A model generated the notes under the pieces. The model saw only the letters and a list, made by a program, of their open reading frames with translations, was not told the origin of the DNA and did not search any database. DNA of 64,000 nt from Owenia fusiformis (lineage: Eukaryota > Annelida > Polychaeta > Sabellida > Oweniidae). Positions 25,303-60,993 of the stretch are shown here, one piece after another. Made by a program: the position numbers and the translations under genes. Position 1 is the stretch's first letter. Every line of letters starts with the position of its first letter. Location of the stretch: positions 16,433,375-16,497,374 of the forward strand of contig CAIIXF020000005.1 in NCBI GenBank assembly GCA_903813345.2. Reading direction: 5' to 3'.

Positions 25303-25525
25303 CTATACAAATGTTGACATGGCAGATGGTGACGTTGCATCAGGTTCTCCTGTGTAATTTCCCTCTCTTTTGTTGCCACCATACTGACCAATGAATGATC
25401 CATCCTCATTAAATTTGCCAGGATCAACATCCCCATATTCGGCCATACTGTCTGTTTCGCTCTCCAAAGGCTCCTTTTCATCTGCTAGAGAGGGCTGACT
25501 TTTCTTGATATCATCATCATCATCC
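25303..25525 (-). CDS. Nrg: Nrg last exon: FIGQY ankyrin motif and PDZ C-terminus
   Basis: Acceptor TTTCCAG|GGATG, phase 2 in. Encodes an acidic [18 protein letters not shown] segment, [20 protein letters not shown] and the final AMSTFV-stop (25303-25305). FIGQY is the phospho-regulated ankyrin site of the family; the final TFV fits a PDZ ligand. Confidence 0.96.
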
Positions 25526-28500: not shown

Positions 28501-31500
28501 AAATGTTTCATGTTTATGTTCATTATCGAAATAAAAGGAGAAAAGATTCTGTTTGTTTTCATATATTTTATATTCAAAAATCAACACCAGTAGTTAAAAA
28601 GCTGGTAAAGTAAAACCTCTGTAGTGGAAAACCTTTGGTAGCTCATATAGTACCTTATTTGGTAGTAAGGTTTGTATAACATTGAGTCAATGGGTCACAG
28701 GAGTTTCCATTTACAAGTGTTCCACTTGACATTTGTTTAGTCCATATCATTTCTCTGCAATTACTTTTGACTTTGACAAGAAGGTTATCACAATTAAAAT
28801 GTGTATCATTCTGGTTTAAGTCGTTGATACAAATAAATAGTGCATCTAACAAATTTGCCATTATTTTACCTGGGTATTTTCCTCCTCTGTTCCTCTTGAT
28901 AAGACACACAATGAGTAGTATGAGAAGAAGGAGGGCAAGTACAACCATAATGCCTATGAACCAACCAGCTGTAGTGACCTCCTCTACTTTGGCAGCTAAA
29001 ATAACGAAAGAACACAAAATAAGTCCAAAATACATTTCTACTTTTAATGGATTCTAAGTTGAAGACCTGAAAATTATGAAATGTTAAAAACAAAAAATAT
29101 TCAAGACCTTGATTACAGTTTTTGAGAATTCATCATTGGCAAAACAACATCTGATATACAATATCATAACTCATTAACACAATATTTTTAATACACAATA
29201 TGTATGTTTTTCATAAATTGGAAATTCAGTCATGTAATGTAACAGTACAAGTTTTACACAATATGTATGTTTTTCATAAATTGGATATTCAGTTATGTTA
29301 TGTACAGTACAAGTTTTTATAGTACAGAATTGATTTTTCATCATATTTGTGACAGAAGAAGCAACAATTGTTGTAACCCAAAATTCAAATTTCCCATAAT
29401 CCTCTTTTCGCAACAGCCAAGCTCCATCAAACTGTCTGCGAGGCACAAAGGATTACGGGGAATTAAGAAATGGATATTGATTGTGTCCATATATGGAAAA
29501 TATGTGCAGGTATAAGTACGGATCATTTTTTCACATCACTAAATGATGATAATATAAATCGTTGATATTATCTCTAGAAAAAAGCAAAAAAAGAATTTTA
29601 AAGAGACAAACTCTGCAGAATATTCATTGTAAAGCTTAAAGATCGAAGGATATTAGTTATACAGAGAGCATAAATAATGTTTCTGATTGTACACGTTATT
29701 ACATTTCACAACAAACTGGTTAATTATTTAGGTATATGTATTATCTCAACATCTAATATCTTTAACACAATTTGAGTATTTATTAAATGAAATGCTGCAA
29801 TTTGATTGGATAAAAGAATGAAGCTATGTACAAAGCAAAATAACTTATAAAAGGGTAAAGGGGAAAGCATTTGCTTGGCATTTAATAAATATTTGTGCAA
29901 CTTATTTAAACATGAAAGCATGAAGAAAAGTGGAACAAAATAAAATCTAATCTTAACAAATCTCTATATGAAAAAACAGTTTCTAAATATATTTGGAGAA
30001 ATATAGTTGTAGTGCTCATAATAGATGGCGGTGTAATCTAATCTGAATGAAAAAGCAAGTAAGCAATTTGATGTCAGCAGGATCCTTAATTAAGCAATGG
30101 GTCTTGGGGGTATTAATAGATGTCTCCCCTAGTTCACTCACGCTTCACTTCATCTAAGATAACTTCAACATCTAAAACGTCATAAATAATAAAGCTTAGT
30201 GGATCACTCATGAAATAAAAGCAATTAAAAAGTAGTCAGTGTGTTTAATAATGTGGCGTATGATATGATAACTTCCTGAAATAAATATTATCAACATTAG
30301 TTATGCAAACTACAGATATTCTCCATATAAACATCATGATACTCCCAGATACATTCAGGAGAATATCTGTTGCTTATTTAAGATTATTCATTAGTAAGTT
30401 TGGTTGCAGGGGCACATTCCTTTCAGGGGAGGGGTCACACCGTAACAAACCTCCGATCGCTGTAATATTCCAGTCTGAAGTATCTTCTGTTGTCGTGACA
30501 ACAGGAGGAAGGGTGGGAGCTGATAAAGAGACAACATTTATATCATTCACATTTGAACACAGAGAGAGAAGAGATATACACAATACAACAATTATTTTGC
30601 CACCTTGTTATATTTGGATCCAATGATTGAAAGTGGGCTGATAGGCTCATAGCCAGGATTCGCCAAAGGGGGGTCACTTTTTAAAAAATTCAGGGGTTCA
30701 CTTTTGACAATTTTGGCTCAAAAATCACTTGAAAAGTGCTCAAGTTCGCTCTGTTACCTGTTCGCTGAACAGTGAATTTTCTTCAGAACAAAGAAAATAA
30801 CTGCTACAAACTATGGACAAAAATATATCTGTTATCTTATCATTCCCTTAAGTTGACCTTCATCAAAGAAGAGGGACTTGGATTTTCCTTATCTTTGAAA
30901 GAGGGGTCTCTAGATGTTGCCAATTTCACACAAAATTTGAGGCGGATTAACAGTCGTGGTAAAATAAGATCAATTGTATGGATGTATTCAAGATAATATA
31001 TACATGTAAACTACTATACACACATGTGTAATACTCAATGGACAGAACAAGAGAAAGAGTGAAAAAACAACATGCTAACCATATGCAACAACAATGATTT
31101 TCTCATCAAATAAAGACAATAAAACTCAGGAACATGTTTCAATCATACATACACTTAATAAGATTGAAAAATACAGAACTCAAAATTATATTGAAAAATC
31201 AATGAAGTATTTTTCAAGGAAATGGGTTTTACATTCTTTGAATTGAAGAAAAGAAATATACAAACACAAATCATAGATATTCATTAAACATTCACATACA
31301 TATACATACATATAGGGTGCAAGAAATCATAGACACCAACAAACAATAGAATCATTACATATCTTACCTCTTGCACCTAATAGGACTTCTTTGGTATCAC
31401 TGTCGGTTTCTGTGACACCATTACCACTGACTGCTGTAACGTAAACGTCATAGCGACCAGCTGGCAACAAACCACTGATATTGCGCCAGTATTTATATTC

Positions 31501-34500
31501 CTGACTATCTGTTGTGTTCCAATCACCATCATCACCTAAATTAAAAAATAAATTATCAGTCAAATGAAATTTTCATGCTTCCTTATTGCATAAAACCAAT
31601 TATTTCAACCACAAGGCACAAATAACTGACTTGTGTGAATAGAGAATGGACTACATGTACTTATAAATCTTCTCTTCCTGTGAACACTGAGAGACGTGTG
31701 ACTTTTTAGTGTTGGATGTACGTTAGGCTTTAATAAGGCATCAGTACAAATCAATCCTGTATTACTTGTTGGCTACATTACCGTAGAATTTACCTGTAGG
31801 TCTATAGTTCACATAGAAGGTTGCTCCTGGGTTTTCTGATGCTCTTGATTCCTCCCAGGTGATATTCATCTCAGACTCTCCTAGTGGTTTGCCAAAGAAT
31901 TGGGGCTTACTGGGAGCTGCATGTAAATATGAATGCACAATATAAAACAACACATCACAGGCCCGTAGCCAGGATTTGCCAAGGAGGGTTCAGTTTTCAA
32001 AAATTTCCAGGGGTGTTCACATTTGACAATTTTGGCCCAAATATGGCTAAGATCACTTGAAAAGTGCTCAAAATGGTGAAAAACTGCATGATTTTGAAAT
32101 AATCTTTGGCCAGGAGGGGGGTTCGCAGGAACCCTGCATTTAACATGTAGTTAATGCATTTAAGAAATAATAATCTTTTAAAGATCAAATTAAGTTGAAT
32201 GATCCATCCTTTGTTTACACTAAATCAATTGACTTTTAAAATCATAAATCATAAATACTATATCTGCATAACATGATTGTATATGGACAGCATGCAATAC
32301 AGATTACCATAGGTCAGTTACAATATGCGGAGTATATTATCAAAATAAGTTTGTACATTATTGTTTTTTCTTCAATTACCCTTCATTTCCTGAGAAAACT
32401 CTTTACAATTTTAGACTTGTTTAAGTGAGTTGAATTTTCCTGTCAAATTGCACCTTTAGAGTTTAACAATCATAAAAGAACTACAACAACTACTTACGCT
32501 GGTTGACTCTGGTTTTTGTCTCCGTACATTTCTTCTCTCCTCTTCCAGCTCCAGTCTTGGCATAGATACAAATTCTGTACTTGGTGTCTGGATCAAGATC
32601 CTTCAATTTGGCAACTGTCTGGGTCGGGTCATCAATCGTCTCAGTTGAACTCCGAGAGGGGTCGAGATTGCCATCTTCATCAACTGGAAAATAAGGCATT
32701 AACATAGAACAAACTATCACCACCTGGCAAGTTACAAAAGTTTAACATTTGTCACAGATTGTCTTTAACAGATATATAGTTTAAATTTCTCAGATCAAAA
32801 ATATTTGTTTTAAATTAACAAATACTTGACATAAAGGAGATACGTTTTTATTTTTATATCTACCCACAAAATCCATGTAATTCTTCATTTAATTCACTTT
32901 TAACTAATATTGCCAGTTTTTCATGATTCCATAAGCATCATTTAAGGACTCTCAATCTATTGTGAACCAAACATTTACAAAACCATGAAAGTGTATCTAG
33001 TGGACTTACATGGAACATATTCTATTTCATATCCTTTGAGATTCCCATTTACTTCCTCTGGCTCATCCCAAGCAACTTCTACATGGTGAGATGCAGGTTG
33101 GGTCACATCAAATTCACCAACAGGGCCAGGCACTAGAAAATTGAAAAAAAAATTAATCTCATTTATATACATACATTCAAACCAATGGACAGAAAGTGAG
33201 GACAGATGCCATGCCATCTATATAACTTCTCATCCCCATTGAATGAATTAAAATGCCATCATATATGTTATGTACATAAATCACTTATTTTGGTCACATG
33301 ATGGAATCTTACTGACTAATGTGCTATGTAAGAAAACACCAAATGTGAATTAAATGGCAGCCACATATATAATATATGATTGTTTATTCATTACTATTAC
33401 TATTTGAGGAATTTACTGAGGGAGGTGTTCTTAAACTCAGGATTTTTTCCTATTTCAAGAGAACATAAGTCAAGAAAACTCTGGACAAAAAGAACTATAC
33501 TAACATCCTTCGGGAGTGAGCCACTCGTACTTGACGCTAGGAGGCCCATCGTAATATCTATTCATAACCATGACGTGCGCTACCAGATTGGAGTATGGGT
33601 AGAGGTTAGTCACGTGACCCTTGACGACAGGGGTGTCAGCTTGGCGTTTACTATATGAGCGTTTATCACACTGTAATACATCATTGGGGTATTCTTGGAG
33701 GACTATTTCACTGGTTTTCCTTGTATCCTCATACTGGTCAGCTATCCAGAACTCAACCTGGAGTACATACACAAAAGTAATACTTATTTATTCAATAAAA
33801 CAGATATAACATTAAATAACATTAATAAAAAGTATAATTGATTTTCTGAATTACAAAGCCATACAATGTTTGATGAGGATCTTTATATTTCAAATTTAAG
33901 AGTTTACTGCCAAAAGGTAAATATCAATTGTTACATCATAAAGTTTTTTAAGGTGTTAGATGACACACATAAGTACACCCATTTTATATAAATGAACATG
34001 ATTTCATTTGTCACTGTTAATACATGATTTTTGACATGTACAGGGCCTTTCAAATACCAGTGAAAATGCTGTTTATGACTGTACCTTGTATCCTTTGAAG
34101 AAACCTCCAACATTTTCTGGGCTGCAGTCTATCTTCTCCCATCTGAAAGTTGCTGCTGTTCCATTACTTGGTTCCTCTTCATCAACACGGAAACCTTTAG
34201 GACTTACTTTGGGTTCTTGAAAACACAAGAGATATTTATTTATATTAGCCGCCTTAGAACCACATTGTATTAAAATTGATTAACTAAACATTGAGTCTTT
34301 GAGGCAAAAAGTACTTTGTGAAAAGTTTAAATGGTGCGGCAAAAAGCCATAGGAAAATACTGACCTGATTCCCCAGAATAACCAAAGTGCTTCCTGGCTT
34401 TCTTGAGGCTGACTCCAAAGGCATTGGCTGCTCTGACTTTAAAGACAAATGGGGTGAATGGTGCCCTGTCTTCAATTTTCAATTCCCCACGTCCCTCTAT

Positions 34501-37500
34501 GTGTGTCACATTAACATGTACCCATGGTGGCCTAACCTGGTTAAGGCGTCCTTCATAATAGCTTACGATATAGTAGAATCCTGGTCCATTGTGGTCCATC
34601 TTAGCCATCGTCTGAAGTTAAATATATTAGGGTGATGTACTGGAAGGTTTTCAATACAAGGATTAAACTAGAGCTCTAAAGGTTTCATAATTCCTTGGTT
34701 CATCTGGTTCACAGTTTTTATCTTTTTCCATTATTCAAAGTTAGAAACACAGTTTTACATAGCTATTACTTACATCCCATTTAATGAAGAACTCTCCAGG
34801 TTTCTTGCTCTCATCTCGGACATTCTGAGGGTTTTTCTCTGGGTTAGCTGCAGGAGTCTTGCACACTGAGCCAGTAGGATCACTTGGCTCACTTAAGCCT
34901 GCAAATATAAGACATCAATTTAAAACAAAAATGCAATCAATTAAACATGTAAAACAAGTGTAGGCCACAATGAAAAAATCAATCTTTTATATCAATCAAT
35001 CTTCAATCAATCTTTTAAATTAAAATAAAATTATGGATGAATTTTTTCATGACTTTCATGAGTATACAGTGTGTTGTCATTTTTGTCTGTTTCATTTGAG
35101 CAACGTTCACATGCAAACCAATGGGGTAAGAAGTGAGGAACAAACCACAAATGATATACCATCTATATGACTTTGCATCCCCATTTATCTGATTTGAATG
35201 AATTAAAATGCCATTTGGAGGTGCCACTGGGATTTGTATGTGTAATTTTAGCATTTGTATTTTCATTTTGAGTGGGAGGGGTGGAGTCAAAATGTACATC
35301 AATATTCTGATCCAGTCCATAAATATTAAACCCCAGTTACAACTGAACTTGCCTAAATGCCTGTAAAAATTCCACCTTTGCCTTATACATTTACATTCTT
35401 TAAATTCCTGAACTTTTTTTCAAAATTTGTGACTTACCAATACCATTTTCAGCAATAACTCGGAATGTATAGTTGACGTATGGGGACAAGCTTATCTTGA
35501 CTGGAGCATTAAAGTTACTGGATACTGTTAATTCTTGTTGTCCATTCCTGTCCTTAACCCGATACCATTTATCTTCAAAACCTGTCTTCATTTCAATATA
35601 ATATCTCAAAATTGGAGAGTTATTTGGAGATGGTTTGTCCCACATAATGGAACCAGTTCTAGCTTCACATGTCTTTGTTACGACGTTTGTAGGTGCATCT
35701 GGTACAGAAAATACGACAAGTTCGGCACTAGCCTCAGTTTCATCTACGCTGGTTTTTGCAACACATGTATAGGTGGCAGTGTCGTCAACTTGGGCATTTG
35801 TGATGATCAATGCATTTGTGTTGAGATTCTTATTTATGTTTGGTTCCCTCTGAAAAGCATATAATAGATAAAATGCGACAAAAAGCAAAACAATATCACA
35901 TATGCATCTCTTTCAATGATCTTTCTTTTACCTGCTTGTAACAGACTAAATTTAGAATTACTTTATTTTTTACTCTGAATATAAGATCTTTTACCACCTA
36001 CCTAAATAGACTTAATCAATGATTAATTGTCACATATGGTGCCTTACCTCATAGTCAATATATTCTCCATTCTTCTTCCATTCTATGACAAGGTTATCAG
36101 TCTCTGCAGGATCCACTGTGGCATCACATTCAAATGTTGTATCTGTGCCCTTCTCTACTCTCTCATCTTTAGGCTTCTGACTGACAACAGTGGCCTCTGA
36201 AGTAACATGACACACCACATAGAAAATAACATGACAATCCACATAGAGAATAAAACGACACACAACATACAGAATAATATAATACAATAGCACACAAGAC
36301 ATACTGCATACCCGTTAACTGTTGTAATTTATTAAAACAAAGTGATAGTTATAAATTTTCTAGTTATTTTTTAAAATCTGAAGTTCTAGATTTTTTTTCA
36401 AAAAGTGGGAGTTTTCTCCGGAGATAGTTGGCAAGTCTACCCTTCTATTGTTGACCGAAGTCAATCAATCAGTTTTTTTAAAAATGTATTTATGTTTGAC
36501 ATTCAAGCTTATACGCAGCTTCCTGTTGATGCGATCAGAAAATACTGAACAACAGAAATGTTGTACTTTTATAATACACAGTATATAATACACCTTAAAG
36601 TCCCCGTCTAAAGTTTGAAAATATTTTTTTTTCATTCATTTACTATTTGTCAGGACTTAAAAAGTGATTTTAGAGATTTTTGAACAAAAAAAAAATTTGA
36701 AAAAAAAGTTGTGAGCATTTCATTTCTCAAATATTCAAATTTCCCGCCATTTTTCAAAAAAGTTGAAATTTCTTAATCATCAAATATTTCTTAATGGATT
36801 TCAAAAAAGATTATCTTTTTAACACCAATGCAAAGGTTGAACAAAGGACACACTATTTCAATAATAAAATGCCATATTTAATGGGACACTTCAATGTTTT
36901 AACATATCAAAAATATTTTGAAACATTAGTGATGTCACTAAGGTACCAAAAACTTTTTGAAAAAAATTCAAATTTCTTTTTCGATGTCAATCTTTTCTAA
37001 ATATGTTAGACTTTCATAAAAAACCAATGTTGATTGTCTAACCAGGTAAAAAGGAAGAATAAATTATGTTTTAAATATCTTTGTACCATTGGTTTCTATG
37101 AGAACTAAAATTTTGAAATGCATTTTTCTCAGAACCATTTTCATGCACCGATAAGTTCAATTTTTGCTTGTTTATCAACCAATTTTCTTAATTTTTTCGG
37201 CAAAAAACATGGGAGGATGAATGCTATGCATTGATATGAATTGTGGCTAATTAGAAGATATGAGTGACCTCTAAAAGTTGGTTTTAAATAAATTCACAAA
37301 TTTTGGAACAAAAAGCCTATCAAAAACCACTTTTTGAAATTTAAAAAAAAAGTTTCACATATCACACTTTGATAACATTGGGTAAGACTACAATATAAGC
37401 CAAAGTGGTTTAAACTTTACATGGGGCCTTTAAGAAAACTTACTTCTGGTAGACAAAGTTGCTTCCCCAGGCAGCTCTCCAAACTTGTTTGTTGCAATAC

Positions 37501-40500
37501 ATTTGTAGACACCTGCATCCTCATCTAGATCTATGTCTCTAATGCTCAAGGTACCTAAAACATAGTGAACAGTGATGCACTGTCTATTACCCAACAGGGA
37601 CAAGGCTTAAATAATGTATAAATGGAGCAATTTTCTAAGGGATGTAAATTGGTATTCAGAAACCTTTAGGGGCTCTGGTATCTGAAACCTTAAAGTTTTC
37701 TTCACACAGATGCAGGGCTCCAACCCTTGTTAACAAGTTTATTCTCAGGACCATTCTTAATAATGAAATTTGGAGCCCAGTGTCCATATCATGAGGATTA
37801 ACGGGTACATAGGAAGAAAATTACCAAAGTTCATCAATTTTGTGATAGTCGAAGTAGAAATCATGATGAGTATGAGGAAAATAGCTTAGGAAATGTAATT
37901 TTACTACCACTTTTAGATACATAGGAAGATTTGAAATATCCAATTTGCACAAGTTGTTGTGTGTAAGCTTGCAATGATTTGTGCACAGACATGATCTTTA
38001 AAACCATATTTGTGCAACATAGTATTATTCTATATATATATTTTATTTTTGAGATACATTTTAGATAATTTCCCAAAGAGGCTTTATCATTACTTAAACT
38101 TACCTGTTAACTGATCAACTGAAAATCTTGAACCTTGAAGGGGCTGTCCATCCAACGTCCAGGTTACTTTGGCACGAGGGGCAGCAAATGTCTCACATTT
38201 GAACTCAACTGATTGTCCTTCAGCTCTGACGGCATCCTCTGGTGGTGAACGCCACTCTGGGGGTAGGGCTATAAAGTAAGATTTTTCCATATTAATCTTT
38301 GGTATGAATTAACAATATTTAAAATAATTATGGAATGAAAACATTTTCAAAAAATATTTAACATAAAATTTTTGATGAATAATCAATAATTAACAGATAT
38401 ATATACGGTAGGCATTGTTTCAGCACTGCATCTTTGGTACACAAAGATGTGAGGTTAGACTCCCATATCTCCAATTTTAAAGAATAAAGAAAAATTGTAA
38501 ACTAAACAAATAAATTATAGAACAATTTTAACATTGATAAAAAGTATTAATAAAAAAAGGAGTGTACAATCAGGATGAGTAACATTTTTTGCCCAACCTG
38601 TCGAAAAAATTAGAGAATTTTTCAGTTGATGAAATAATTAAGTCTTCTGTAATCAAAATTCAAACTACACTGTATTAAAAACAGAACACACTTTTGTATA
38701 AATAAACATGTACAAGCTTTTGGTTTCTCAATCTGTACACACAACTTAATGGGGGCATCCAAAGGGGGACAACAAAGTAAAAAGAGGGGTTTTAACATGA
38801 AATTTTGATTTTAAGATACAAATAAACAAAACAAAAAAGTCATAATTTGTGTTCAACATAGTAAAACATTTGCCTTTAACAAAATTTTTGGTACTCATTA
38901 CTGTCAAAACTAATTTTACACAAGTGATTTACATTCTATGCAAAAACCCAAAATAATCTTCCAGTGATTTTCCAACAGTTAAACACATTACATTCATGGT
39001 AGCAATTTTCGAAGATTTCTTCTTTTTGTATACTCATGTTTTTTGCGATTTTTGCAAAAGTTTCAAATCATGCCAGGAATACAATTTTATATTTGCACCA
39101 CCCTGAATTAGGCATTTTATACTCAAGCGAATATACAATGTTCATGAATTCAATAATCAAGATGTCTGCAAATTTCATGTGTTTTGCAGTACTTGACTCA
39201 AATTGTACCCTTTTCAATTCCATCTTCATCACATTACTGTTAGCCTCTGGGCTTCAAGGTTCTCATATGGCAAACACCTGGGTGTGGTAATACAAGGTCT
39301 ATAAGGTAAGTGTACCCCTAAGCTGGCCTCTATGTTAATTAGTGGAATGATAATTACTTGTTTACTGGTGGTATCTTATCATATGGTCAGCTAATACAGA
39401 TGGAGTTGGCACATAAACTAGAAAAACAGCAACTCAACGGAGTAGCAAATCCCACCGAACAAAACATGTTTTGATAAAAAATTTGAGTCAAATTCATCCA
39501 CTGGTATTTGAATTATCAAAGATTATGTTTTTATGACACATGGTTGCCATTTTGAAATTCAGCTGTCATCTTTAGATTTCTTCTTTAGCAGAGAATGTCA
39601 GTCCAATGGTATTTTGGGTTATCAAAGATTACTTTATTAATGAAAAATGGCAGCCATTTTGAAATTCAGCTAACGCCTTTAAAATTTCTTCTGAAGCAGA
39701 TCTCCTTTTTCCCTAAACATCAGCAAATAAAATTGGAACCAAATCCATCCACTGGTATTTGAGTTATCATTAATTACATTTTTTACGATTTGAAATTCAG
39801 GGGCCATTTTGAAATTTAGCTACCACCTTGAAAATCCCTTCTCGAGCAGAGCTCCTATGTTCCTAGGCATCATCATGTAAAATTTGAACTAAATCCATTC
39901 AATTGTAATTGAGTTATCAAAGATAATTTTTTTTACAAAAAATGGCCGCCATTTTGAAATTTAACTGCCATCTTGAAAATCCTTTCTCGAGCAGAGCTCC
40001 TATGTCCCTAGGCATCAGCATCTTAAATTTGAACCAAATCCATTCAATGGTATGTGAGTTATCAAAGATAACGGATTTTTACGAAAAATGGCCGCCATTT
40101 TGAAATTTGGTGGCCATCTTGAAAATGTCTTCTTGAGCAAGGCTCCTTTGTACCCAGGCAACAGCATATAAAATTTGAACCAAATCTATCCACTAGTATT
40201 TGAGTTATTAAAGATTATATTTTTTCTGAAAAATGGCCGCCATTTTGAATTAAGTGTTCATATTGAAAATTCCTTCTCGAGCAGAGGTCCTACACCCATA
40301 AGGCATAAGCCTATAAAATATTAAGTGTTCATATTGAAAATTCCTTCTCGAGCAGAGGTCCTACACCCATAAGGCATAAGCCTATAAAATTTGAATGAAA
40401 TCCGTCAACCGGTATTTGAGTTATTGCCCAGACACACGAACGGACGGACGGACGAACGGACGGAAGAACGGACGGACGAACGGACGGACAAACGGACGGA

Positions 40501-43500
40501 CGGACGGCTTTTCTATATTCCCCTCGAACTTCGTTCGGTGGGATAACAATTGCATGTAATCTGGGATAATGGAGGGGTTCTCACTTTATGTGAGGAAGAA
40601 TTGCTGTTTGACACTTGACACTGAGACACTGCGACACTATCTTTCATGTCTCTCAGCTTTGATGTTTAAAATATTTGTATTGTTTATTTGTGATTGTTCT
40701 CATCATCAAGATCAAATAATGGGAGATCTTAGTATTAGAGCTAAAACACAATTGCACCTTAGAGATTTTGGTTGATCCTCCAGAAATTCAATACCCATAA
40801 ACTTCACCAGTATTTTTTGATTTCTGAAATTTTGTTTATGGCAGCAATTGGCACAATTCTTTTTTGAAAACTATGACTATATTTATTAACTTAAAACATA
40901 GATTTCCACAGATTTTGAATGACCTAATGTATTTCATTGTAATATGAATTTTTTGTATTGTTAATATATAAAACTGTACCATATGCATATCACATATTGT
41001 TATTTCTAGTATAGGTAAGTTAGAGTAGTACAAGACTGTATTTTAGTAAAAGAATTGTTACTTATTAAGAGCACATTGTTTACAATACAAAAATGTAATC
41101 AATCAGGTAATTCCTTAATTACAGGTGTTATGTTCGGCCGTAGGTGGTAGGGAAGAAATAGATAATTTCCTAGCTATTATCTGATAATACATCAACAACA
41201 CATGCTTGAAAATATCTCAATTAAGATTGGACTATTTAAAGTCTTGGAGGTGGCATTCTTCCATATCAATTTCTTCATATTATGTTAAAAATATTTTCAA
41301 TCAAACAAACCCTTGTGTTTTCCCTTGATATATTGGAAGGGAACTAGAAATGGGCTATAGACAAACTGATAATATTTTGAAAGTCTCAAACACAGGTTAT
41401 AAGTCATTCTCAAACTTAGACTTACCTATATACTACTTTAAGTAAGGGGTCGGGGGGTCTAAAGGTTGAAAGGAGCAAAAAGTAACTTTCTATCTCCATG
41501 CGTGACATGCAAACCATTCAGATTCTATGATTGCCAACAGGGACAAAATCAAAATAAATTTGAACTTAAATAATACATACCCGGGAATTCAACACAAAAA
41601 ACTTCAGTAGTGTTTTCACTAGCTGTATGGTTGTCTACATTGTCATCTTTATAAGTAGCATTAATGTCTGAACCATTAGTAGCATTTATATTAGAGCGAG
41701 TAGTAGTATCTTTATTTGCTGATTCAGCAACATTTATGTCAAAGTCATTAGTAGCATTTGTATCAAAGTTTTTATTAGCATTTATATTAGAGAGTGAAGC
41801 ATTATTCATGTTAGCAGCCAAAGCATTTATGTTAGCCTCTGAGGCATTTATGTTAGCCTCTGAAGCATTTATATTAGTGCCTGAAACATTTATGTTAGCC
41901 CCAGAAGCATTTATGTTAGCAACTGAAGCATTTATGTTAACAGAATCATTTGTGTTAGCAGGTACTTCAAATGAAGTATTAGAATTTGATATACTCTCAA
42001 TATGACTATCACCTACTGTCCAAGTACCATCTGTATAATTAGTCATATCTGTATAATTAGTCATATTGAATTTTGACTCAATGACAAGCAGAACCTTTCT
42101 TTTGGGGATAGGAGACTTTGCCATAGCAACAGGTGTGCTAGATTTTGCAGTTGTGCTTAAATAAGTTGTGCTTATGCTATCAGTTGTGCTATTGGGCTTC
42201 TTAGTTGTGCTTTGTGGTAAATCATTGGGAGGCGTAGTTGTTATACCTATAGAGCCCTCCACCTTAAGTGTTTTATTGCTTGAAGTTATGTTTAATAGTA
42301 CTTTACCATTGTCCATTATTCCAGTGATCAAGTCAGTCATCTCATCTGAAGGTTGTGTGTCATTATTCTGTGCTGACACACTGATATTGTTCATTGACAC
42401 ACTGATATTCTGAGCGATTGTAATATCAAATGCCACAACCAGGAAGAAGATAATCAGTTTTATATCCATTTTGTCCATTTTATGAAATGTAGTGTTATTG
42501 TCTGTAGCCTTATTCTATTTTTATCATTTAAAAGTCGTCATTATCTGATTTAGAATCCTTATTTTCGTTACTATTCACAATAGCTGAATACCTGAAAATA
42601 TGTCTTTTAAAATATTGTCTCCAATCAGCACTGTCAAATCCAAGGACCCTAGTCTCAATGAACCAAATACAAGTTCCCGCACATGTAACACTGCTTTGAT
42701 ATCCACAATTTAAAATAATAATATTGACGTATCACTAAATTCACAATGAAAATATCTGCGGATTACTATAAAGTTTTCTTAGCAGAGTGTTAGAGACTGT
42801 AATATACAAGCACTTGTTCTCTAATGGGATAAGATCCTTCCTTGAGGCTTTATTCTCAGAATCATAAACTCCAAGTCTGTTTCCTGATCCCCTGTTGTTA
42901 CCAGCCTGAAGCCAACCACTCCCAATGTCCCATGTGTGTATGTGTATATGGTTAACTGCCCACTAATGAACTTCTCTGATACTAGCCAGCTTGCTTGTAC
43001 CCTTGACAAGAGAATGACTGTATCAACACTCTGGTTTAGAGACAATAATTTGATCCAGAATCTATCCAACCAGCAATCAGAATATGCCATCAAAAATAAT
43101 ACCACATTTTCTGCCTATCTAATTAATGTCAAAACTCCAATAAAAGCAATGAAAGCTTAATTGGTGATCAAAACTGTATAATAAAATCATCCGTGAACTC
43201 AGAGGGTTGTGTGACTTGCAGGTGGCGATACAGGGTTGCTTGATTGCATGTTACACACCTTACACATGATGTATCCCCTGTCTTACATATCCAATCATTC
43301 CTTATCTTGATTCTCTATGGTAATAACCAACAATCAGGGAACCATACTATATTACATAAGCTAGTTTCTAGTTTGAGTTACCAATATGTGGCTAGTTAAT
43401 GAAACCACAGATCTGTGTTCAGATATTTAAGACAAGACTTCAACTGACTGAATGGACCTACTGTTCTCAATCAGTTCAATCTAACAAGATGTATTTCCAT

Positions 43501-46500
43501 CAGTATTGCCCTACATTTCTATATTTTACAACTTGTCATCAAATAGATCAAGTTCTCTACTGTGAACCCCTTGGGACAACTTGCTATTTCAGTATTGAAA
43601 CAAACTGCCTAATATACCCAGTCAGGTGCACAATAGCAAGAAAACATAGTACAAAATGGAGGGTCAGCTTTCAAGTTGGCCCATTCCTCATGACTTTCTC
43701 GTGACTTTGCGTTATACTGTAGTATAATCTGACTGGTGCTTTAAGAATAATAAAAAATATTTAGAAACTTATTTTTCAGGTTTATATTTTGTCTACTCAA
43801 CCATACTTAATCTAAACTAAGGGATTTAAACTGTGGTTTCCAAATCTCTGAAGACATACGTGGCTTCAGTTTGGTCAAAGTATCAATAAAAGGAGTTTCA
43901 CTAATGGGTGATCCTTTGGAATGTTTACTGACTGGCCAGTCTATAATGTAGCAATGTTGATAATAAGGCAAACATGCTGTCAATAAGTAAACATAAACAA
44001 ATTAGAGACCAGGAACAATAATGCACTGAACAGAGCACCAGGAACACCCAACTTTCTGATCTCATACCCTGAAAACCTCCAGTGCCCATTTCATGAGTTT
44101 GGTTTCACATCTTTAAAAGCATTCATCTGATTACTACTCTGGGCCGTATTGTTAAACCAGTGTAATCTTTCAGTCATATGAAATACCTTGATGGATCAAG
44201 ATGTCTCTGGGCTTCAGCAATGAAACCTAGAGGGTTTTCCTCAGTATAATACTATCCAGTATCCTTAGTATTATGAGTTGCAAAGTCATTCTCATACCAG
44301 ACACATCTTTATTTATTGCAAGCTGCAAAAATCAAAAGTTATTCTGGACAAACTTTCTAGAAAGGAAACTGATTATGACAGATTGACAGTGATCTCACAA
44401 TGAGACCACACCCTCTTTTGAGATGTTGTCAAAAGCTTTGCAAGGATACTTATCAGAGTGCTACAGAAGTTTATTTTGAAGTTTCTTCCTTGTTCCCTTT
44501 CAATTTTGAATGAACAATCAAATACACTCAGGTCATATTGGTATCTTTCATCAAAATGCCCTCAAATGCAATCTTGTAGTAGACTTGTACATTACATCAT
44601 AAACCAGACTAATTACATTACCTGCAATACCTGTTGATTGGGATTTAATTGGTATTTAATTGGTGTAATGTTGTCTGTTGCGATGGGCCAAATATGTGTC
44701 TTACAATAACATTTGCCACTATACCTTTGTTTGTAGACTTAATTATCTAGCTTAATCAAAACAAACCAAAAATATGTCTCATCTCTTGACCTCTATCATG
44801 ATTGAAATATAAATAAATGATGGCACCCTTTATCCCAAAAATGAAGTCCTAATTTTAATGCCTTGATTTTTGACAGTGCTGTGTGAGACTACTTATAAGA
44901 TGAAAGGAATATCATATCTGACCACAGGATATCATATCTGACCACAGGATATTATACATGACCACAGGATATCCGATTTGACCCCCAGGGACAGTTCCAT
45001 GACATATCCTGGTCACAGTATGAACTTCCTTTACTTTAAACTTCAACTCACCAAAGAGAAGTTAATGTTTCTCTATTATTTCATCTAAATTCTTATCTGA
45101 TAATAAATACTTCTCTGGCTTTCTTCTATGATCTTTAACAGCATTGTATGACTTTCTTTAATCCATGTGTGCGTGCCAATTAATTATGACATGAATTTAT
45201 AAAATATTGCCCAGATAATATTGCGTATTATAATCCTGTGTGAATTTTTTTTTCTAATATCATATTAATTATAATGTCCTCTAAATTGTTTTTACTCTTT
45301 GAGACATGTATGTTACATGAAACTGACCAGTATGCATTATAATATTGCATATGATAAGCTGTTACTTCTTAAGTGTCTGTTTACTGTTATATGCCAGATC
45401 TCCTATCCGCCATGTTTTAAGATACCATGTAATCACTACTTCACAATGCAACATTTAATTAAGTCTGATATCCTCTATAGTGGATGCTATTCAAAATACA
45501 GTAAAACTTGCATGTGTTAACATCTGTATTTAATGTTCGATAAATAAACTTTCCATTCCAAAAGAAATTAAAATTCAAAATTGATAAACAATAAGCATCT
45601 TGACTGAATTATGAACAATTCTGAAAAATATCAAGATTTTTTTTCGAAGTATCCAACTGAGTCTACAGAGTCCCACTATGTAACATATACACATTTTAGT
45701 AGAAAAACAAAGAATTCTTTATATGTGAATAATACATATTGATAAATTCACTCAACAGCAAACACTGACTTTACCATATGGTAAAATCTGTCAAATTCAA
45801 ATGCCACTGGGAACTGAAAACTGAAAATGGAACTGAGAGAGTGTTCATATTGAGAAGTTTTACTGTATGTGGTAATATCACAACAGCCACTTATAATGCT
45901 CACTCCAGTTTATATTATTACTGCCTTTCAATATGTACGATAACTACTTTGCATAATTTTCAAATATTTCACCTGTATTAAACAGATGTTACCTGATGTC
46001 ATCACACCAAGTAATAATATAACAAGGTAACATAAAATTAAGTGGGGATTCCAACAGAACGTTTCAACATATCACTCCATGGACCTTGTGTATTTTCAGA
46101 TCCTCGCACCCTGGGTCCCAAACAAACCAAGCAAGTATCATATCTAACATCTTCAATAATTGCTGGAGGCTTACTCTACATAAGAATATTAAGTAAATGA
46201 AAACAGGAAGTTTGAAGTAATCACATTTCATAATGAGGAAAAAAGTCCTGATTCTAAGCATGCTGATGCCCAGTGGTTTTTAATGAAGTTCTCCACAAAA
46301 AATCAAACAATATTGAAGAGTGTGATAGTAGTTTTATTACACTTTCCAAATGAAGTTCGCATGGTTGATAAGAAATGAGATTTCAAGGTTTATGATATCA
46401 TGATTCTGGAGATGTGATCAAGGGGAAAATGTTCACATGGGACAAATGTTCAAGAAGGACATTACAGTCAGGCCCAGAGCCAGGATTTGCCAGGGGGGGG

Positions 46501-49500
46501 GTTCAGTTTTCAAAAATTTCCAGGGGGGGTTCACATTTAACAATTTTGGCCCAAATATGGCTAAAATCACTTGAGAAGTGCTCAAAATGGTGAAAAATTG
46601 CATGATTTTTGAAAGAATTTTTGACCAGGGGGGGGGGCAAACCCTGCGAAACCCCCTGGCTACGAGCCTGCAGTGTCACATAATATTATCTAAACAGCAA
46701 TCAAATGAGAGCTATTCATTAGTCGATGTCCATGAAAAGACAAGTTTCACAAAGACAAGTTCTACTGTAATTCCCATTTCTGTTATCACCTCTTCTTTTA
46801 CTTTGAAGTGAAGGCCTGGCATCTTATCTCCCAATGTGCTTCACTGTAGAACTGAGTTAACAATACATTGATTGTTCAGATAAATATTCTTTTCTTCATC
46901 TTAGAACTGATCCTACATCATGTCTACAGGTTTACCATATTCAACATGACTCTAATAACAAGGCAGGAATTTCAATATGCTTGCAATTTATTGATACATG
47001 TATATTGCACAATGAATTCATAATATCCCTTTAAAATGAATATCAAGTGCATGATGTATCATGAGGGCAATGGCCTATTTCAATAACAGAGACACATGGT
47101 CTGAATAGCAAGATAGCCTGGCTGGGCTATTCAAAAATCAGATTTTTGATGATAAGTGAATCTTCCCAAATATTTGATTAAAAATAGATTTGTTGAATTA
47201 ATCTTAGTCTTGCCTCTAGCTCTTACCCCCCCCCCCCCATATAGTTTACACCAACAAGAGAGACTGGGTTGGGGGGGGGGGGTCCTGAGACTTCATTAAG
47301 GACTAAATTCACATTTTCATCAAGTTGTTGTTATTTGATTGTTTATAAAGATGGAGAAGATACCTGATAAAATGATAAGTCTTGCATGAAGCCCTTTCTT
47401 CCCCCCTGATCATCACACACCTTTAACAAGTAGGCTTATTACGTAAGGTTCAAGACAGCTGATGAAAAATAATAAAATTATAGATCGCCTTAGTAACATA
47501 ACTAGATGCATACACAAAGTAATCAGGTTTCCAGCAAAATAGAATGGCCGAAAGTGATGTTTTATCTCACAGTTTACAGTGAAAGATATAAGTCCTGGAG
47601 GTGGTGATTTTATCGCACTATGAACATGTTCAGTATGTAAGATGGTTACATAAGCTAATAGAAAACATGATATGTATATCCTTAAGGTGAAGTCATTATA
47701 TCATTAAAGCAACTCCACCAAAGCCTGAGTGAACCTGTCTTGCATTGCGTCTTATTCTAACCCTTCGACCCACTTTTCATAACAACCATATTTTAAACAC
47801 ACAGGCCCCCCCCCCTGGCCAAAAATTATTTCAAAATCATGCAGTTTTTCACCATTTTGAGCACTTCTCGAATGATTTTAGCCATATTTTGGCCAATATT
47901 GTCAAATGTGAATCCCCCCCTGGAAATTTTTGAAAACTGAACCCCCCTTGGCAAATCCTGGCTACGGGCCTGACACATGTCGGTCATCACCCTCTGACTC
48001 TTTCAAATATTTCTTGGTAGTCTATGTACATGTAGTAACATTTCTGCCAAGTTTCATGACATGACTTCTAATAATTTATTGGTCACCCCCCCACGTATAT
48101 AGCCACACAAGGGTGGGAAATAATGAGGAGATAACAGATGAGGGAAGGCAAAGGCTATTAAAAACACATTTAGGGTGCAATACAAATGAAGTAATTTCAT
48201 ATTCCTGATCAGTTTTTTAACAGGCTCTAATTTACTGCCATATTAGATTAATAATGTTTACCTTCTAGTCATATTAAATTAATTTCATACCTTGGGAAGT
48301 CGAGATGACTCGAACAAAAATAAATCTTACTGATCTAAGAGTGACATCTATGTTAACATCCTAATTGCAACTGCGCTACTATTATCTTTTGTACAGATTG
48401 AGAACCAAAAATAAAGTACATGCGTTTTATACAGAAATTTGAATCTTTAATTTTGTCACAGTAGGCATATTCAGAAAACCCTTAAACAAGGATATTTGTA
48501 AAAACTAGTATAATGCATAATGGTCTCCTGAAAAAACCCTGACATATTTCAACCCAGTTCACCGGGGTAAGTGTTCTCCAAGGGGAGACAGTAAAATCTC
48601 ATTCATGAAATGGACAAATTCACTTGTATGACATTCATCTATCTGTTTAGTTACGACAATCCAAATTTTCCATTTCACATATGAGATTTAAAATCATCCA
48701 TTCTCCAAGACATAGCTCAATCATTTACTTACCCAGTACATTGAGTAACCATTCTCCAAGACATAGCTCAATCATTGACTTACCCAGTACATTGAGGTAA
48801 CCATTCTCCAAGACATAGCTCAATCATTGACTTACCCAGTACATTGAGGTAAGCATTCTCCAAGATATAGCTCAATCATTTACTAACCCAGTACATTGAG
48901 GTAAGCATTCTCCAAGACATAGCTCAATCATTGACTTACCCAGTACATTGAGGTAAGCATTCTCCAAGACATAGCTCAATCATTTACTTACCCAGTACAT
49001 TGAGGTAAGCATTCTCCAAGACATATCCGTGTGTGTTGTTAGCCATACATTGCAACACTTGGGCATCATCTTTGGTGAGATTCGTGTAGTTAATGGAAAG
49101 ACCATCAGCTGTCAGCACTCTGTTGACGGCTTTTCGCACATCTAGCAACAGAAAAAAATATTCATTAAAATTTACTAATTTACCCCTACAAGCCACACAG
49201 TAATAAATATACTCTTTTATCTAAGAATACAAAATGGGTGTTAAAATTTCAAGTTGAACATGTAAGCAGTTATCCTGGAATTTTGATGACAAGATTCATG
49301 AATAATACTGGATCAAGAGTTAGAACCTTTCCAAATATCATTACATATCACTATAGCTGTGTATGATCAAGAGTTAGTATCTTTCCAAATATCATTACAT
49401 ATCACTATAGCTGTGTATGATCAGTCATAGAAAAAGAATATGAATATGAGATAATAGAACATAATAGACAACGTTGTTAAGGTATTGAATAACAGCGGAA

Positions 49501-52500
49501 ACTGTGTAGAACAAGAAATTTGTAAAACTTGAATGTGGCAAATTGTTACCTTCACCATTGGAGTACTTTCTGTGACTATGTACTTACTTTCTAAAGGTAC
49601 GCCATCTATAAACCACTTGATTACAGGTTGAGGGTCACCTCCTGCCCGACAGGTGAATGATGCGCTCTCACTGTCTGATGAGTTGACATTTTTAGGTTTC
49701 TCTGTGAAGTAAGGGGCAGCTGAAAACACAAATATTGTTAAAGTACTGACTTTTCGTGATTTCTAACTTGTGACACCTATATTGCTTGGTTTTAACTACA
49801 AACGATCATTGTTATTGTACAGGTATTCATCTTTGAAGTACATTTACAAAACTTCTGTACAAGTGCATGTAATATCAATCACATGCACATATACTTACAT
49901 TGCACATTTAGGACCACAGTTAAACTGACTGTGCCTTCACTATTCTCCCCTGTACATTCATATTCTCCAGCATCCTCCACCTCAGCTTCAGGAATCAAAA
50001 GTTCACGGCCAAAGTCAAGGAACTCTGCGCTACTGGGCATAGGTTCGCCAATTCTTCTCCAGCTCACTGTGGGAGTAGGCCTAGTAGAAGATATACATTT
50101 TTGATTATTTTCTTACACCAATTATATCTGATATTATCAATCTTTGAACAATTTTTATTCTGAAAATGCTTCAGACCTTTTAGGCTTTTGGCTTTTCTCT
50201 TCATTATTCTGTTCTTGTAGGTAAGAGAATTTGTCATCAAATGGACTTTGGTATTGTAAATGTTATCTATCTTTTGATTTTGAAATTTGAAAAATTGTAA
50301 ATTGACAGTCCTCAATACTATCACTGAGATTATTTTGCAAATTACAAAGGAAACATGGTTTGTTTGAACTCTTGAATTCTTAAAATAGGCTTAAAGTAAT
50401 AAACAAATACTTTTTTTTAAAAGTTAGATAAAATCTATTGAAAGTTGTACCAGGGCTTAAACTCTGGCATAAGGAAGAAATATATTTCAAAAATGCAATA
50501 CTTACAGGCCACTAAATATACACTTCAATAAAGCTTCTTGCTTGACGAGTACCACTTTCGGAGTGGGAGTATGGTACATCTTCTGCGGGGCCTTATTTCG
50601 TGTTCTTAAAACTGCAATAAAACATACATAAACAATTTGGTATTTTTCAACTGTGGAAGAATGATCAGTCTTGCATCAATCCCATGTATGCTTCCACCCC
50701 CCCCCCCATAACAAATACTCATTTAACACAAGGTTGAAGTAAGGAGTTTGGGGGAGGGCATTAACTTGATTCAAGACAATCAATTTACTAAATATAACAG
50801 ATAAATGGTTACAACATCCAGTATCATTAATACAGGGTGCTACTCAAGCTAAGTACAGCACTGTGCTATCTGATATAAAATGAAGGGTAGGGGAACTTGT
50901 ATTTTGTGAGTTCCCAAAATATTAGTACATGGAGGAAATGGAGTAAATAAGGTAAATACCTTTTCCTTATACTTGGGTAGCACCCTATACTTAACTGATT
51001 AAAAGTAGAAAGTCTAAATGATTATTCTCATGAAGAAATTGAGGATTTGGAATTTTAATGAAGAGTTATTACAAATTCTATCTATATTAGAGACATATAC
51101 TATACGTATGTGGTATTATATGAATATATAAGATATCTATGTGATCAGATTTTCCAGGAGATGTCAAGGTAATCTGCAGATCAGTTGAAGTCTTGCTAGT
51201 GACCCTTCATCCCTAGAGTGGCTACACACATAACCTCCAAAAGGTCAGGAAACAGGAGGTGGGGGGGGCATTTGATTTTTTGATTTCACAAAATCATGTG
51301 TTGTCTTTCAATGTTCAAATAACTAATGTTTCCCATTGTGCTTTTTCATTTATTGATGTAGGTCACAGTGAACTTATTCAAAAAATAATATTTCCAATAT
51401 TAAGTAATCAAGAGGAGGGATTAATGTTTAAAATATCAAGTTATCATGTTTAAAGTACGAAGACAGATGTCATTTTTATCTAAAATTCTCAAGCTCAGTC
51501 AACGATGTGGTATCCCAGTAGGGAAATCTCACATTAAAGACACACTTATTTTCTGGTAGGAAGGGATAGATAACTTTTGCACAAAATATTATAAAACTGC
51601 CACATGCATATTGAGAATTCAGACATGACTCGAGGGTCTAACAGTCTAGACCAATCAAATTGCTCTTTGCAGTTCAATTATATGTCAATAAAGGATCCAG
51701 CATTGATAGTTGTGGAAAAACGGAGTTTATAATGGTTTATGTCCTCTCCCCATATAATGAAATTTGAAAAGTTCACTTAATAATCAACATTTTTCATTAA
51801 CAAAATCATTTCCCCCTTCTTAATGAAATAAACTTTTGTTTTTCCACACTACAGTTTCCCTCATCCCCAATTTCATAGCAAGATAGATTTAATTATTCTG
51901 CAAGTAAAAATAAGAATTATAAAAGTGAAAAGGCAAATTCTGCATGGTGCACATATTCTGCTAAGCAAGAAGTCCCATCAAGATTGCCACAACATTTTAA
52001 AATCAAAATCCCCTTTCCCCAATTCAAGCGCAGAACTCCCTGATCAAATGCATTGTTTTTTGTTGTTGACAAATTACATGTTCAATGACCGCATGTATAT
52101 GTATATCAATTTAGTAAAGCTAGCTCACTTTTTTCGTATTTAATGTAGGTTTCTCAAAAAAGAAATAGAACAAATACTTATCATAAACACATTTAACAAA
52201 ACCAATAAATGACTACCTTGAACATAGTGATGTTAAATGGAAACTGTGTTTTAGAAGCAAACCCTAAATGAACTATGAAGAATCCATTCTACTCCTAGAT
52301 ATTTCCGAACATATATGCAGTCCCATAACCGACTAACCTCTACCCCCAGCTGTGATTTACATACATGTAAAGAAGCACCCCCAGTTGATGACATCATATG
52401 ACATCAATGTCATATCATAGATGCACCTCCAGATGATGACATCATATGACATACATACACACATTGTACAAGCAATCCCAGCAGATGACGCCATGATTTG

Positions 52501-55500
52501 ACATACAGTTGATGATGTCAGGATTTGACATACATACACATATATTGCACAAGCAACCCTCAAGTTTAGGGCTTGTTGATATGATATGACGTGCACACAC
52601 ACATATTAAACAAGCACCCCAAGATAATGGTAGATAACGCCAGGTAGCTAACGGATTACCTGGCTCTGCAACTATACGTGTTATTCCATCTTGGACAAAC
52701 ATCCCGACTACAGTATTCTGTGAGGTACAAGCATATTTGTTCACTCCATCCTCTGCTAAGATATTAGCAAAGTGAAGTTGACCTGCAACGAAGGAGTCAT
52801 GTATTGCTTTATGAATATAGAAAAATGAATAAATTCAACTGACCTTTCTTTGGTTCAATTATGGAATCCTCTCCTTGTATATAAGATCTAACATCGCTAT
52901 TTTTCACAGTGCAGGAGTACTTTAAGAGATCTTTTTCTATTATGTTAGCAAAATGGAGGTTACCTGGAAAAAGCAAATGAACAATGCCAGCCATTAGAAG
53001 TAAAAAGCAGGGCATTTAGTGTGATATGGCATATGAATGAAAATGATTGGAGGTGGTTGAATGATTTTTGGTGGTTGAATGATTTGGAGGTGGTTGGATG
53101 ATTTGAAGGTGGTTGGATGATTTGAACGTGGTTGGATTGATTTGTAGGTGGTTGAATGGTTTGTAGGTGGTTGGATGATTTGTAGGTGGGTAAATCACTA
53201 TTATTAGCACCTTGAGAGGCCTGTTCTCGGGGTATCAGAACTAGTTTAGAATCCTTATATTTCACGATATTGACTTGAGCAATATTGGTAAGCCATAGTT
53301 AGTCATTATCTGAGTTTGTACTAAGCATTCAAAAGGTGGTGATAAAAATTTTAACCACATTTCAGTGGGCAACAAAGCCAAAGGATGAAGATTTCAATAT
53401 GTTGCCCTTTGAAATGAGATTTCTATAATCTAAATGGTTGAAAACTCGAAGCCTAAAAGGTTGAACACCTGAACCCTAAAAGTTAAATGGCTGAATGGAT
53501 AACTACCTACTACTAACTAAATAAATGATTGGACACTGGATAACTAAATGATAGAACCCTGTGACAAAATGGTTGTTCATTTCTTTACTAGGTAGATGAT
53601 GGAATTTTGAATCACCAAATGGTTGTATTCCAAATGGTTGTATTCTCTTAAAATCTGATGACAAATATGTTGGATACTGAATGATTTAATGGTTGGAACT
53701 AAATAGTAAAATATCGAATCACAATATAGAAATATGATTAATGAATGAAGTGTAACTGCAATCCGTAACAATCCAATGTTGGCACCAAATCTGAAGAATG
53801 AAAATGTTGATGTGCAGAAAATCACAAAACCTCAAAATACAGCACCATTATTACTTTCATATGGACAAATATTTCTAATCATAGTGTAATATACAACATT
53901 TCATCAGCAATAGAACAATTAAAAGAAAGTCTAATGAATTATTGACTATTTCAAATCAGAATCTATTACTTTAACACTAAGGGAGTTTTCTTAATTAAAA
54001 GATTCATACACCAGTACAAGGAGAAAGGTAATTCTTCATGCAACGGCAAGAGAAGCCATAGGATTTATTTACAACATTTTTCCAACCATAGAAGAAACCG
54101 AAATACACTGAAGTAAAAATAAAATATTATAGTTTAATCACTCTATTGAATGGTCCGTTCTTGAATTAATGTTGAACACCTAAAAATGATGAGAACGAAA
54201 GTAAGACGTTGAATCAGGAAACAAAAACAATAAAATTGATGAAGAAGAGAATATTCAGAGTTGGGAGGCGCTGGATCACACCAAAAGCAGAAACACGAAC
54301 GAACGAAGGGAATCAACAATATAAAAATCTAGTATGTAATAATATCACGTCATGAATATAAAATAATGAGAAATGGCGTAATGACATGGTTAGGGGTCCC
54401 TGGTGTTGGTGGCAAGCTCGTGTTTGCCTTGATGCAGGTGATACGGTGATTCAGTGAAATGATGCTATTTGTGATTTAAACCATCTGAACCATACCAGCA
54501 AAGTGTAAAAGCCTGACATGCATGCACATATTCATGCAAAACACCAGATAATAATAATAAAAATAGATTTTTAAATCTAAAATTGCCACTTCACACATTC
54601 AAGTAATTTGACAAGGTAGGATAGAGTAGTAGGTATAGATTTACAATAATCAGAAATTGTATGATTTGTAAAAATAACATAAAAGAGGATTTTCTTTTAA
54701 CGTAATAATGAAATAAAAGTAAAACTAGAAATGTAGTACATATATAGTACATATACAGTACAGTAACCAGCCTAAGCATATAGTGTAATTGCTACTGAAG
54801 CCCCATCTATATTGACTAAAACCAACTGCCCCTAAACAACAAGATTAGAAAATGTGATGGCAATGCCCGGGCGTTACATGTCCAGTAGTTGCATGTTGAT
54901 ATTAGCCCAGTGCCGTGAGCATTGCTTACCTCCTATTACCACAAAACAAAGAAAAATTCTTAACATTAATTAGAAAACACAATACAATTTAATATAAACA
55001 TTCATTATTTCTTTCAGTATATTTGAATGTTGGAGTAGTCTCTGGTAATGCCTGGGTCTCATTTGCTCCGATTCACCAGCCGGCGCCTGGCCGATTGAGT
55101 GTTTTGCTCAATATTGTATTCAATTTTGAACAAAATACTCAATCGGCCGGGCGCCGTAGTGAAAATCGGAGCAAATGTGACCAAGGCATTAGCCGCCTAT
55201 CTATATCCCTGCAATGAGAGATAATAGAAGGAGCATACACAGACTCAATATCAGCTAAAGTTGAAGTTAAGTCATTTGATTTTTATTTCACCAGAAGATC
55301 AAATGAATTCTAAACTAACTCATTTATTTTATAAGTTCTATTATATCATTTCTATGACATTAAAGCTAGTTTTAACGTACCAGATTCATCCCAACCAACC
55401 CTGGGGGTTGCAACTACGGGGATAATCCCCGCACTGGCTCTGGACCCTTCCTTTGTCCAGGACCAGAATACATTGGTCTGGTCCTTGGGGTAGCTGTAAG

Positions 55501-59922: not shown

Positions 59923-60993
59923 CTGCAAGTAGACAGGATACACATGTTCAATGTTAGCTAAACATAGGGAACCTTGTTCAATAATAAGAGGGGGGGGGGC
60001 GTTTGGAACGTTTATCTTCAGTAGGGAGCGATTTTTGGCAGTCCTACGAGCATGTGAATATTATATAATACTGTATATGAAAACTCAATAGAAATCTGCA
60101 AAATAAATATGAAGATAATATAATAACAAAATTGAATTGAATTGATTCATGTGGTGGCTCGCCCGCACATCCGTGGGCCCATCAGAACAAGACATCGGCA
60201 ATTTAAAGTACTTTTTCAGAGTGCAATAAAACACAATCTGAAGTAAGTGCAACTACTATATGCAACGATTTTAAGCAACCATATGGATTTAATTAGTAAG
60301 TCACTAGACCTTTGTTCAAAGTGGTTAGCTCAGAGAAATGTCTCCAAGCAGAAATAAAACAATGTACTGTACTGTTACATCTATTGCAAATACATGTTTA
60401 CGATAGCATGTATCACAATTTGGGAATATCGTCCTCAATCCCAGGCCAAAGATATTTTGATATCTTAGTTTTTAGTTTTTATTAATTAGGCCAATAAACT
60501 TTGAATAGAATTCAATATCAAAACATTCTCAAACACAATGCCTTTATTATGATTCTTTTAATTTTTCGTACTGTGCTAGACATATCGACCATAAAATAAT
60601 CAATTAAAAAGAGTTTATTAGGGGCAGATAACTTGACATCGACTTTGCTCTATGGGGCGCAAAATACAAGTTCACTCTCTGAATGAAAAGTTCATTTTAA
60701 GGAAATATATAATGTATCTACAAGTACTTATAGGGAGCAATAGAAAATATACATCAAGGACGTAAAAAATGAGAATGTGTTTTTACTCCTATGGGAAATT
60801 TCTCACAAATTGTAATGATGCTGTTCCATGTAGAAGACACATTTACTTCCAGTAAATACAACCATTTGTAGGCTGCCATTACAATTACAGCTCAAGTCAC
60901 AGACATAATCAAATAATTTTGTCTTCCAGGAATATATTTTCAATTATCCTTTACAAAATCAATCTGATGCACTGCTACTCAAGATGACCTTCA
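59923..60993. other. Intron or upstream sequence, no gene seen
   Basis: Contains a G-run (59989-59999). No coding signal and no signal-peptide exon recognised. Confidence 0.4.

What the first reader, a model, noticed from the sequence alone, without database searches (positions are those of the whole stretch)
41581..42478. Hidden alternative first exon would swap Ig1-4 for a signal peptide plus N-glycan-rich stalk
An 898-nt exon-like ORF lies on the same strand in the 10.7-kb intron before Ig5. It starts with ATG and a signal peptide, has over 20 N-glycosylation sequons and a Thr/Ser-rich part, and ends with a strong donor in exactly the phase of the Ig5 exon. The predicted 1206-residue receptor lacks the adhesive horseshoe but keeps Ig5-6, FN3, membrane and ankyrin/PDZ ends, so it could be a non-adhesive or anti-adhesive isoform.
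Basis: partly seen in the sequence, partly recalled or inferred. Interest (0 to 1): 0.93.

Follow-up and report, generated by a model that had tools for sequence, protein, structure and literature searches.

The report
Hidden glycoprotein exon inside L1CAM intron
A large intron of a nerve-cell adhesion gene in the marine worm Owenia holds a real-looking stretch of protein code for a secreted, sugar-rich stalk that may replace the front of the adhesion protein, though no transcript was available here to prove it.

Summary
On the minus strand, 42478-41581 is an 898-nt open stretch in the 10,723-nt intron between the Ig4 and Ig5 exons of the L1CAM/neuroglian gene of the annelid Owenia fusiformis. 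It starts with ATG and a signal-peptide-like segment, carries 23 N-glycosylation sequons (shuffles 11.4 +/- 2.7) and shows strong three-base coding periodicity. One genome match at E <= 0.001. A phase-1 donor at 41580 fits the Ig5 exon, and no convincing other downstream exon was found in the intron. Against it: two protein searches found nothing carrying it; codon choice is intron-like; the donor is average and a stronger one lies beyond the ORF's own stop. A nested gene remains possible. "Non-adhesive" is not safe: C. elegans SAX-7S, lacking Ig1-2, is more adhesive (PMC3400552, passages). New variant of a known kind.

The parts
41581..42478 (-). Candidate alternative first coding exon: signal-peptide-like segment (residues 1-22) + N-glycan-rich, Thr/Ser-rich stalk, 299 codons + 1 nt
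41549..41580 (-). Intron start in the first-exon model (donor GTATGT at 41580); read through, 10 more codons to the ORF's own stop TGA 41551-41549
41420..41425 (-). Stronger donor-like site TAG|GTAAGT (score 11.2) lying after the ORF's own stop
42584..42593 (-). Two acceptor-like sites (exon start at 42591, score 7.3, and 42583, score 8.6), 113 and 105 nt upstream of the ATG; possible spliced 5' UTR
41731..41960 (-). Tandem arrays (periods 21 and 24 nt) inside the ORF, largely NINASxA units, 8 of the 23 sequons
38269..48991 (-). Host intron between Ig4 and Ig5 exons, 10,723 nt, the largest intron of the part of the gene modelled
38104..38268 (-). Ig5 first-half exon, phase-1 acceptor, proposed splice partner
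   Evidence: matches P0002
48992..49141 (-). Ig4 second-half exon, upstream partner of Ig5 in the annotated protein
25303..38268 (-). Shared downstream part in the model: Ig5-6, FN3 repeats, membrane segment (exon 28995-28870), FIGQY-type tail and C-terminal STFV
49588..59923 (-). Exons of Ig1 to the first half of Ig4 of the canonical protein (first one at 59923-59816; residues 1-51 of P0002 were not located in the window)

Best explanation
The 42478-41581 stretch is a real coding exon without known relatives and serves as an alternative first coding exon of the L1CAM/neuroglian gene. Transcription would begin in the Ig4-Ig5 intron (possibly with a spliced 5' UTR), translation at its ATG, and its phase-1 donor would join the Ig5 exon. 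The product would be a membrane protein with a flexible, heavily N-glycosylated stalk of about 277 residues in place of Ig1-4, keeping Ig5-6, FN3, membrane segment, ankyrin-type tail and PDZ-type end. It would compete with or space out full-length receptors while sharing their intracellular partners. Shown: coding signature, signal-like start, sequon enrichment, phase fit, no convincing alternative 3' exon found in the intron, one genome match. Inferred: promoter, splice to Ig5, expression, disorder of the stalk, and function.
For: Coding signature and sequon excess outside the main array; ORF longer than in 300 simulated introns. In six regular repeat units, changes from consensus are fewer in the five NINAS codons (6 of 90 sites) than in the two spacer codons (8 of 36; Fisher p 0.024, small numbers). 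A donor this good within 33 nt before a stop is seen for 275 of 7253 stops examined, in phase 1 for 102, so its place at the ORF's end is unlikely by chance. Of 17 acceptors scoring >= 3 between 41560 and 38268, only Ig5 opens a phase-1 exon beyond 27 residues (59 to the stop) and only it goes on to a strong donor (13.9, phase 1). No acceptor with a positive score lies between 42583 and the ATG; the AG at 42502, in the open frame, scores -2.2, so an in-frame internal cassette is unlikely. Precedents for such isoforms exist (PMC3400552, PMC7252388, PMC12665717).
Against: No protein with this ORF among candidates of about 170-540 aa or 645-2052 aa, although the Owenia gene set used embryonic and adult RNA-seq (PMC9977687, passages); that set averages about 1.2 transcripts per gene and dropped models overlapping repeats. 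Synonymous codon choice matches intron background (LLR -21.3; background -18.6 +/- 7.2; host-like 18.9 +/- 7.4). Among the six repeat units, codon changes are 3 synonymous and 7 nonsynonymous. Average donor, with a stronger one after the ORF's own stop; three acceptors in the intron score above Ig5's 6.2 (41180, 39712, 39417). No TATA-like match at 43500-42479. No homologue of the exon found.
Confidence: 0.48

Rival explanations
1. Independent nested gene on the same strand: a secreted, N-glycan-rich protein of 309 residues read to its own stop (41551-41549), or a gene with short 3' exons of its own within the intron.
For: Own start, signal-like start and stop; codon use unlike the host CDS; strong donor after the stop at 41425, and AATAAA at 40887, 40688 and 39638. 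An acceptor at 38597 (5.4) would add the tail [27 protein letters not shown], strongly hydrophobic (2.86 over 15 residues); 29 of 426 acceptors scoring >= 5 in the window give a tail above a looser cut of 1.8.
Against: A phase-1 donor this good at the end of the ORF is unlikely for a single-exon gene (102 of 7253 stops). No phase-1 exon other than Ig5 stays open beyond 27 residues. Not found as a protein of about 170-540 aa.
Confidence: 0.34
2. A recently silenced or never expressed remnant of a coding sequence, still open but not used.
For: Absent from database proteins in both length ranges searched; intron-like codon choice; no homologue found.
Against: Intact 309-codon frame, signal-like start, sequon excess and periodicity. 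One genome match and no parent at E <= 0.001 argue against a dead copy of a living gene; the looser search did not complete.
Confidence: 0.15
3. Chance open frame made by tandem repeats.
For: About 230 nt are tandem repeats with periods divisible by three, and two shorter repeats lie elsewhere in the ORF.
Against: The 221 codons outside the main array alone show chi2 94.2 against a null maximum of 24.5 and 15 sequons against 6.2 +/- 2.0.
Confidence: 0.03

Closest known systems
C. elegans SAX-7S (short isoform of the L1CAM homologue)
   Same: Same gene family; short isoform with its own first exon and, by implication of the text, its own signal sequence, lacking N-terminal Ig domains (PMC3400552 passages; PMC7252388 whole text).
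   Different: SAX-7S lacks only Ig1-2 and is more adhesive; what I read mentions no glycan-rich stalk. Here Ig1-4 would go and about 277 sugar-rich residues would come in.
beta-neurexin
   Different: Different gene family with LNS domains; promoter established there, not here.
Neurofascin mucin-like region (recalled)
   Same: Glycan-rich unfolded spacer in an L1-family ectodomain.
   Different: There, as recalled, it sits near the membrane; here it would be the N-terminus and is rich in N-glycan sequons.

Membership tests
L1CAM/neuroglian family (host gene) | Six Ig domains followed by FN3 repeats | tested here: met
   Ig_3 and Ig_2 each match 6 stretches in P0002; fn3 has 3 stretches passing alone; five FN3 repeats are my exon labels
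L1CAM/neuroglian family (host gene) | FIGQY/FIGEY-type cytoplasmic tail | tested here: met
   Bravo_FIGEY E 4.1e-24; ankyrin binding itself is recalled knowledge
L1CAM family (predicted isoform) | Ig1-4 horseshoe | tested here: not met
   Absent by construction from the predicted 1173-residue product
Alternative-promoter short isoform (SAX-7S / beta-neurexin type) | Own first coding exon with signal peptide | tested here: met
   (hydropathy and a -3,-1 rule; no dedicated predictor)
Alternative-promoter short isoform (SAX-7S / beta-neurexin type) | Spliced in phase to a shared downstream exon | tested here: inconclusive
   Donor and phase fit; no transcript seen
Alternative-promoter short isoform (SAX-7S / beta-neurexin type) | Active internal promoter | not testable with these tools
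   No CAGE, ATAC or RNA data; no TATA-like match 43500-42479
Retrocopy or transposon gene | Parent gene or further copies in the genome | tested here: not met
   1 match at E <= 0.001 (itself) in the 498-Mb assembly, 28 candidates scored; looser and DNA searches unanswered

The most novel reading that the evidence does not exclude
An annelid L1CAM gene makes, from a promoter inside an intron, a receptor whose Ig1-4 module is replaced by a lineage-specific N-glycan-rich stalk with repeating NINAS sequons, so that one gene makes a full adhesion receptor and a glycan-shielded form sharing the same ankyrin-type and PDZ-type ends.
Probability: 0.42. Interest if true: 0.68.

Novelty: new variant of a known kind. 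Interest (0 to 1): 0.5.

Why it matters
If true, an old adhesion receptor gained a lineage-specific N-terminus by acquiring a first exon, a natural test of what L1 proteins do without the Ig1-4 module. It would also show that an RNA-seq-based gene set can miss a 300-codon exon inside a well-annotated gene. The question is directly testable with existing Owenia RNA-seq.

Tried and rejected
In-frame internal cassette: the AG at 42502, the one I scored in the open frame upstream of the ATG, scores -2.2. Retrocopy or mobile element: one genome match, itself; blastn of 43600-40600 against the window at E 1e-3 gave only itself and its internal repeats, and tblastn of the ORF gave one other weak match (18909-19226, E 1.0); no Rfam match at gathering score. 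Domains: Pfam gave only a sub-threshold match (E 0.13). The lone-sequence AlphaFold model has mean pLDDT 36.5 and no confident fold; it fits disorder but is uninformative without an alignment. Relatives with a stalk before Ig5: P0002 was compared with the 88 other proteins; none has its first aligned residue at or after Ig5 (residue 447; latest 355), but Ig cross-matches between domains make this test weak. Candidate 3' exons at 39417 and 38597 were considered and ranked below Ig5. The exon scan began at 41560 and so left out an acceptor-like site at 41564 (5.3). Literature: the listings of nine searches showed no title about an alternative first exon in an annelid L1CAM gene; none was aimed at exactly that, and only an open-access library was searched.

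Full report
What the locus is. The minus strand of the window carries an L1CAM/neuroglian gene. An exon model built from splice sites matches an Owenia fusiformis protein, P0002, at 98% over the whole query; with the first of two duplicated Ig2 exons it is identical to the last 1233 residues of P0002. The Owenia genome paper describes a 505.8-Mb assembly (PMC9977687, passages read); the window's own assembly is 498 Mb in 525 contigs. P0002 has six Ig stretches, FN3 repeats and a Bravo_FIGEY tail. The Ig4-Ig5 intron, 48991-38269, is 10,723 nt; the next longest seen are about 3.4 kb (between the exon at 59923-59816 and the next) and 2,890 nt. The exon for residues 1-51 was not located, so introns further upstream are not measured.

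The ORF. 42478-41581 reads as 299 codons plus one base, with its own stop at 41551-41549. The first 22 residues look like a signal peptide. The remaining 277 residues have 23 sequons, 47 Asn, 36 Thr, 34 Ser and one Cys. Sequons exceed shuffled order (mean 11.4, sd 2.7; 0.00015 of 20,000 shuffles reach 23), also outside the main array (15 against 6.2; none of 20,000). Period-3 composition outside that array is far beyond 500 stop-free simulations (94.2 against at most 24.5); two shorter repeats were not removed. I therefore take it as genuine coding sequence. Against this, synonymous codon choice looks like the surrounding intron and not like the host CDS, which fits a young or weakly expressed sequence as well as a relic. 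Among six regular repeat units, changes spare the sequon codons (6 of 90 sites against 8 of 36 in the spacer, p 0.024), but codon changes overall are 3 synonymous and 7 not.

Ends of the exon. The donor CGG|GTATGT scores 7.46 on a matrix from 22 host donors; 63 of 3646 minus-strand GTs in the window and 11 of 595 in this intron do at least as well, the host's own donors and this one counted. A donor that good within 33 nt before a stop is seen for 275 of 7253 stops outside host exons and the ORF, in phase 1 for 102. A stronger site, TAG|GTAAGT at 41425, lies past the stop. Downstream, of 17 acceptors scoring at least 3 between 41560 and 38268, only Ig5 opens a phase-1 exon beyond 27 residues and goes on to a strong donor, though three others score above it as sites. 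Upstream, acceptor-like sites at 42591 and 42583 suggest a possible spliced 5' UTR. Phase fit is weak evidence by itself: 15 of 19 extracellular exons in my model end in phase 1.

Copies. The ORF has one match, itself, at E <= 0.001 in the window's assembly. Looser and DNA-level searches did not complete.

Expression. Two protein searches found no protein holding the ORF at E <= 1: lengths about 170-540 aa, 2209 candidates; about 645-2052 aa, 7097 candidates. A local control shows that a self-match would score about 1e-175 even inside the joined protein. Other lengths, such as 541-644 aa, were not covered, and clustering at 90% identity could hide an isoform. The published gene set has 31,903 transcripts for 26,966 genes and removed 5,779 models overlapping repeats (PMC9977687, passages), so absence counts against strong expression but is not decisive, and it weighs on the nested-gene rival too.

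Function. It would lack Ig1-4. That does not make it anti-adhesive: in C. elegans SAX-7S, without Ig1-2, is the more adhesive form and the long form has anti-adhesive activity (PMC3400552, passages read). SAX-7S has its own first exon (PMC7252388, whole text read). Beta-neurexins arise from a second promoter and carry a unique N-terminal domain (PMC12665717, passages read).

Verdict. Observation confirmed; interpretation partly supported. Alternative first exon 0.48, nested gene 0.34, unused remnant 0.15, chance 0.03. These weights are my judgement from the donor, phase, downstream-exon and database results, not a computed posterior.

Noticed in passing
52963-52844 and 52782-52660 (-): Two similar Ig2 second-half exons 61 nt apart, both phase 1-1: a candidate mutually exclusive pair in the Ig2 domain; P0002 holds only the first.
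   Followed up: partly
48699-49025: A 52-nt tandem array (6.3 copies, 96% matches) covers the end of the Ig4 exon and its donor, so donor-like copies recur.
   Followed up: partly
30519-30451 (-): Thr-rich 69-nt exon-like stretch between the last FN3 and the membrane exon, absent from P0002: possible cassette.
   Followed up: no
15221-16871: Nine near-identical 183-nt tandem copies (99% matches) whose unit looks, by eye only, like a BTB/BACK-type exon; a BACK match lies at 18166-18528 +.
   Followed up: partly
3034-8021 (+): Retrotransposon-like genes spread over four overlapping ORFs; the one scanned, 5741-7333, has RNase H and integrase domains.
   Followed up: partly
26875-27380: 42-nt x 12 array with long open frames on both strands.
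   Followed up: no
42583 (-): If Ig4 were spliced to the acceptor-like site at 42583, the frame would end after about 18 residues, giving a soluble Ig1-4 form; read by eye from the sequence only.
   Followed up: no
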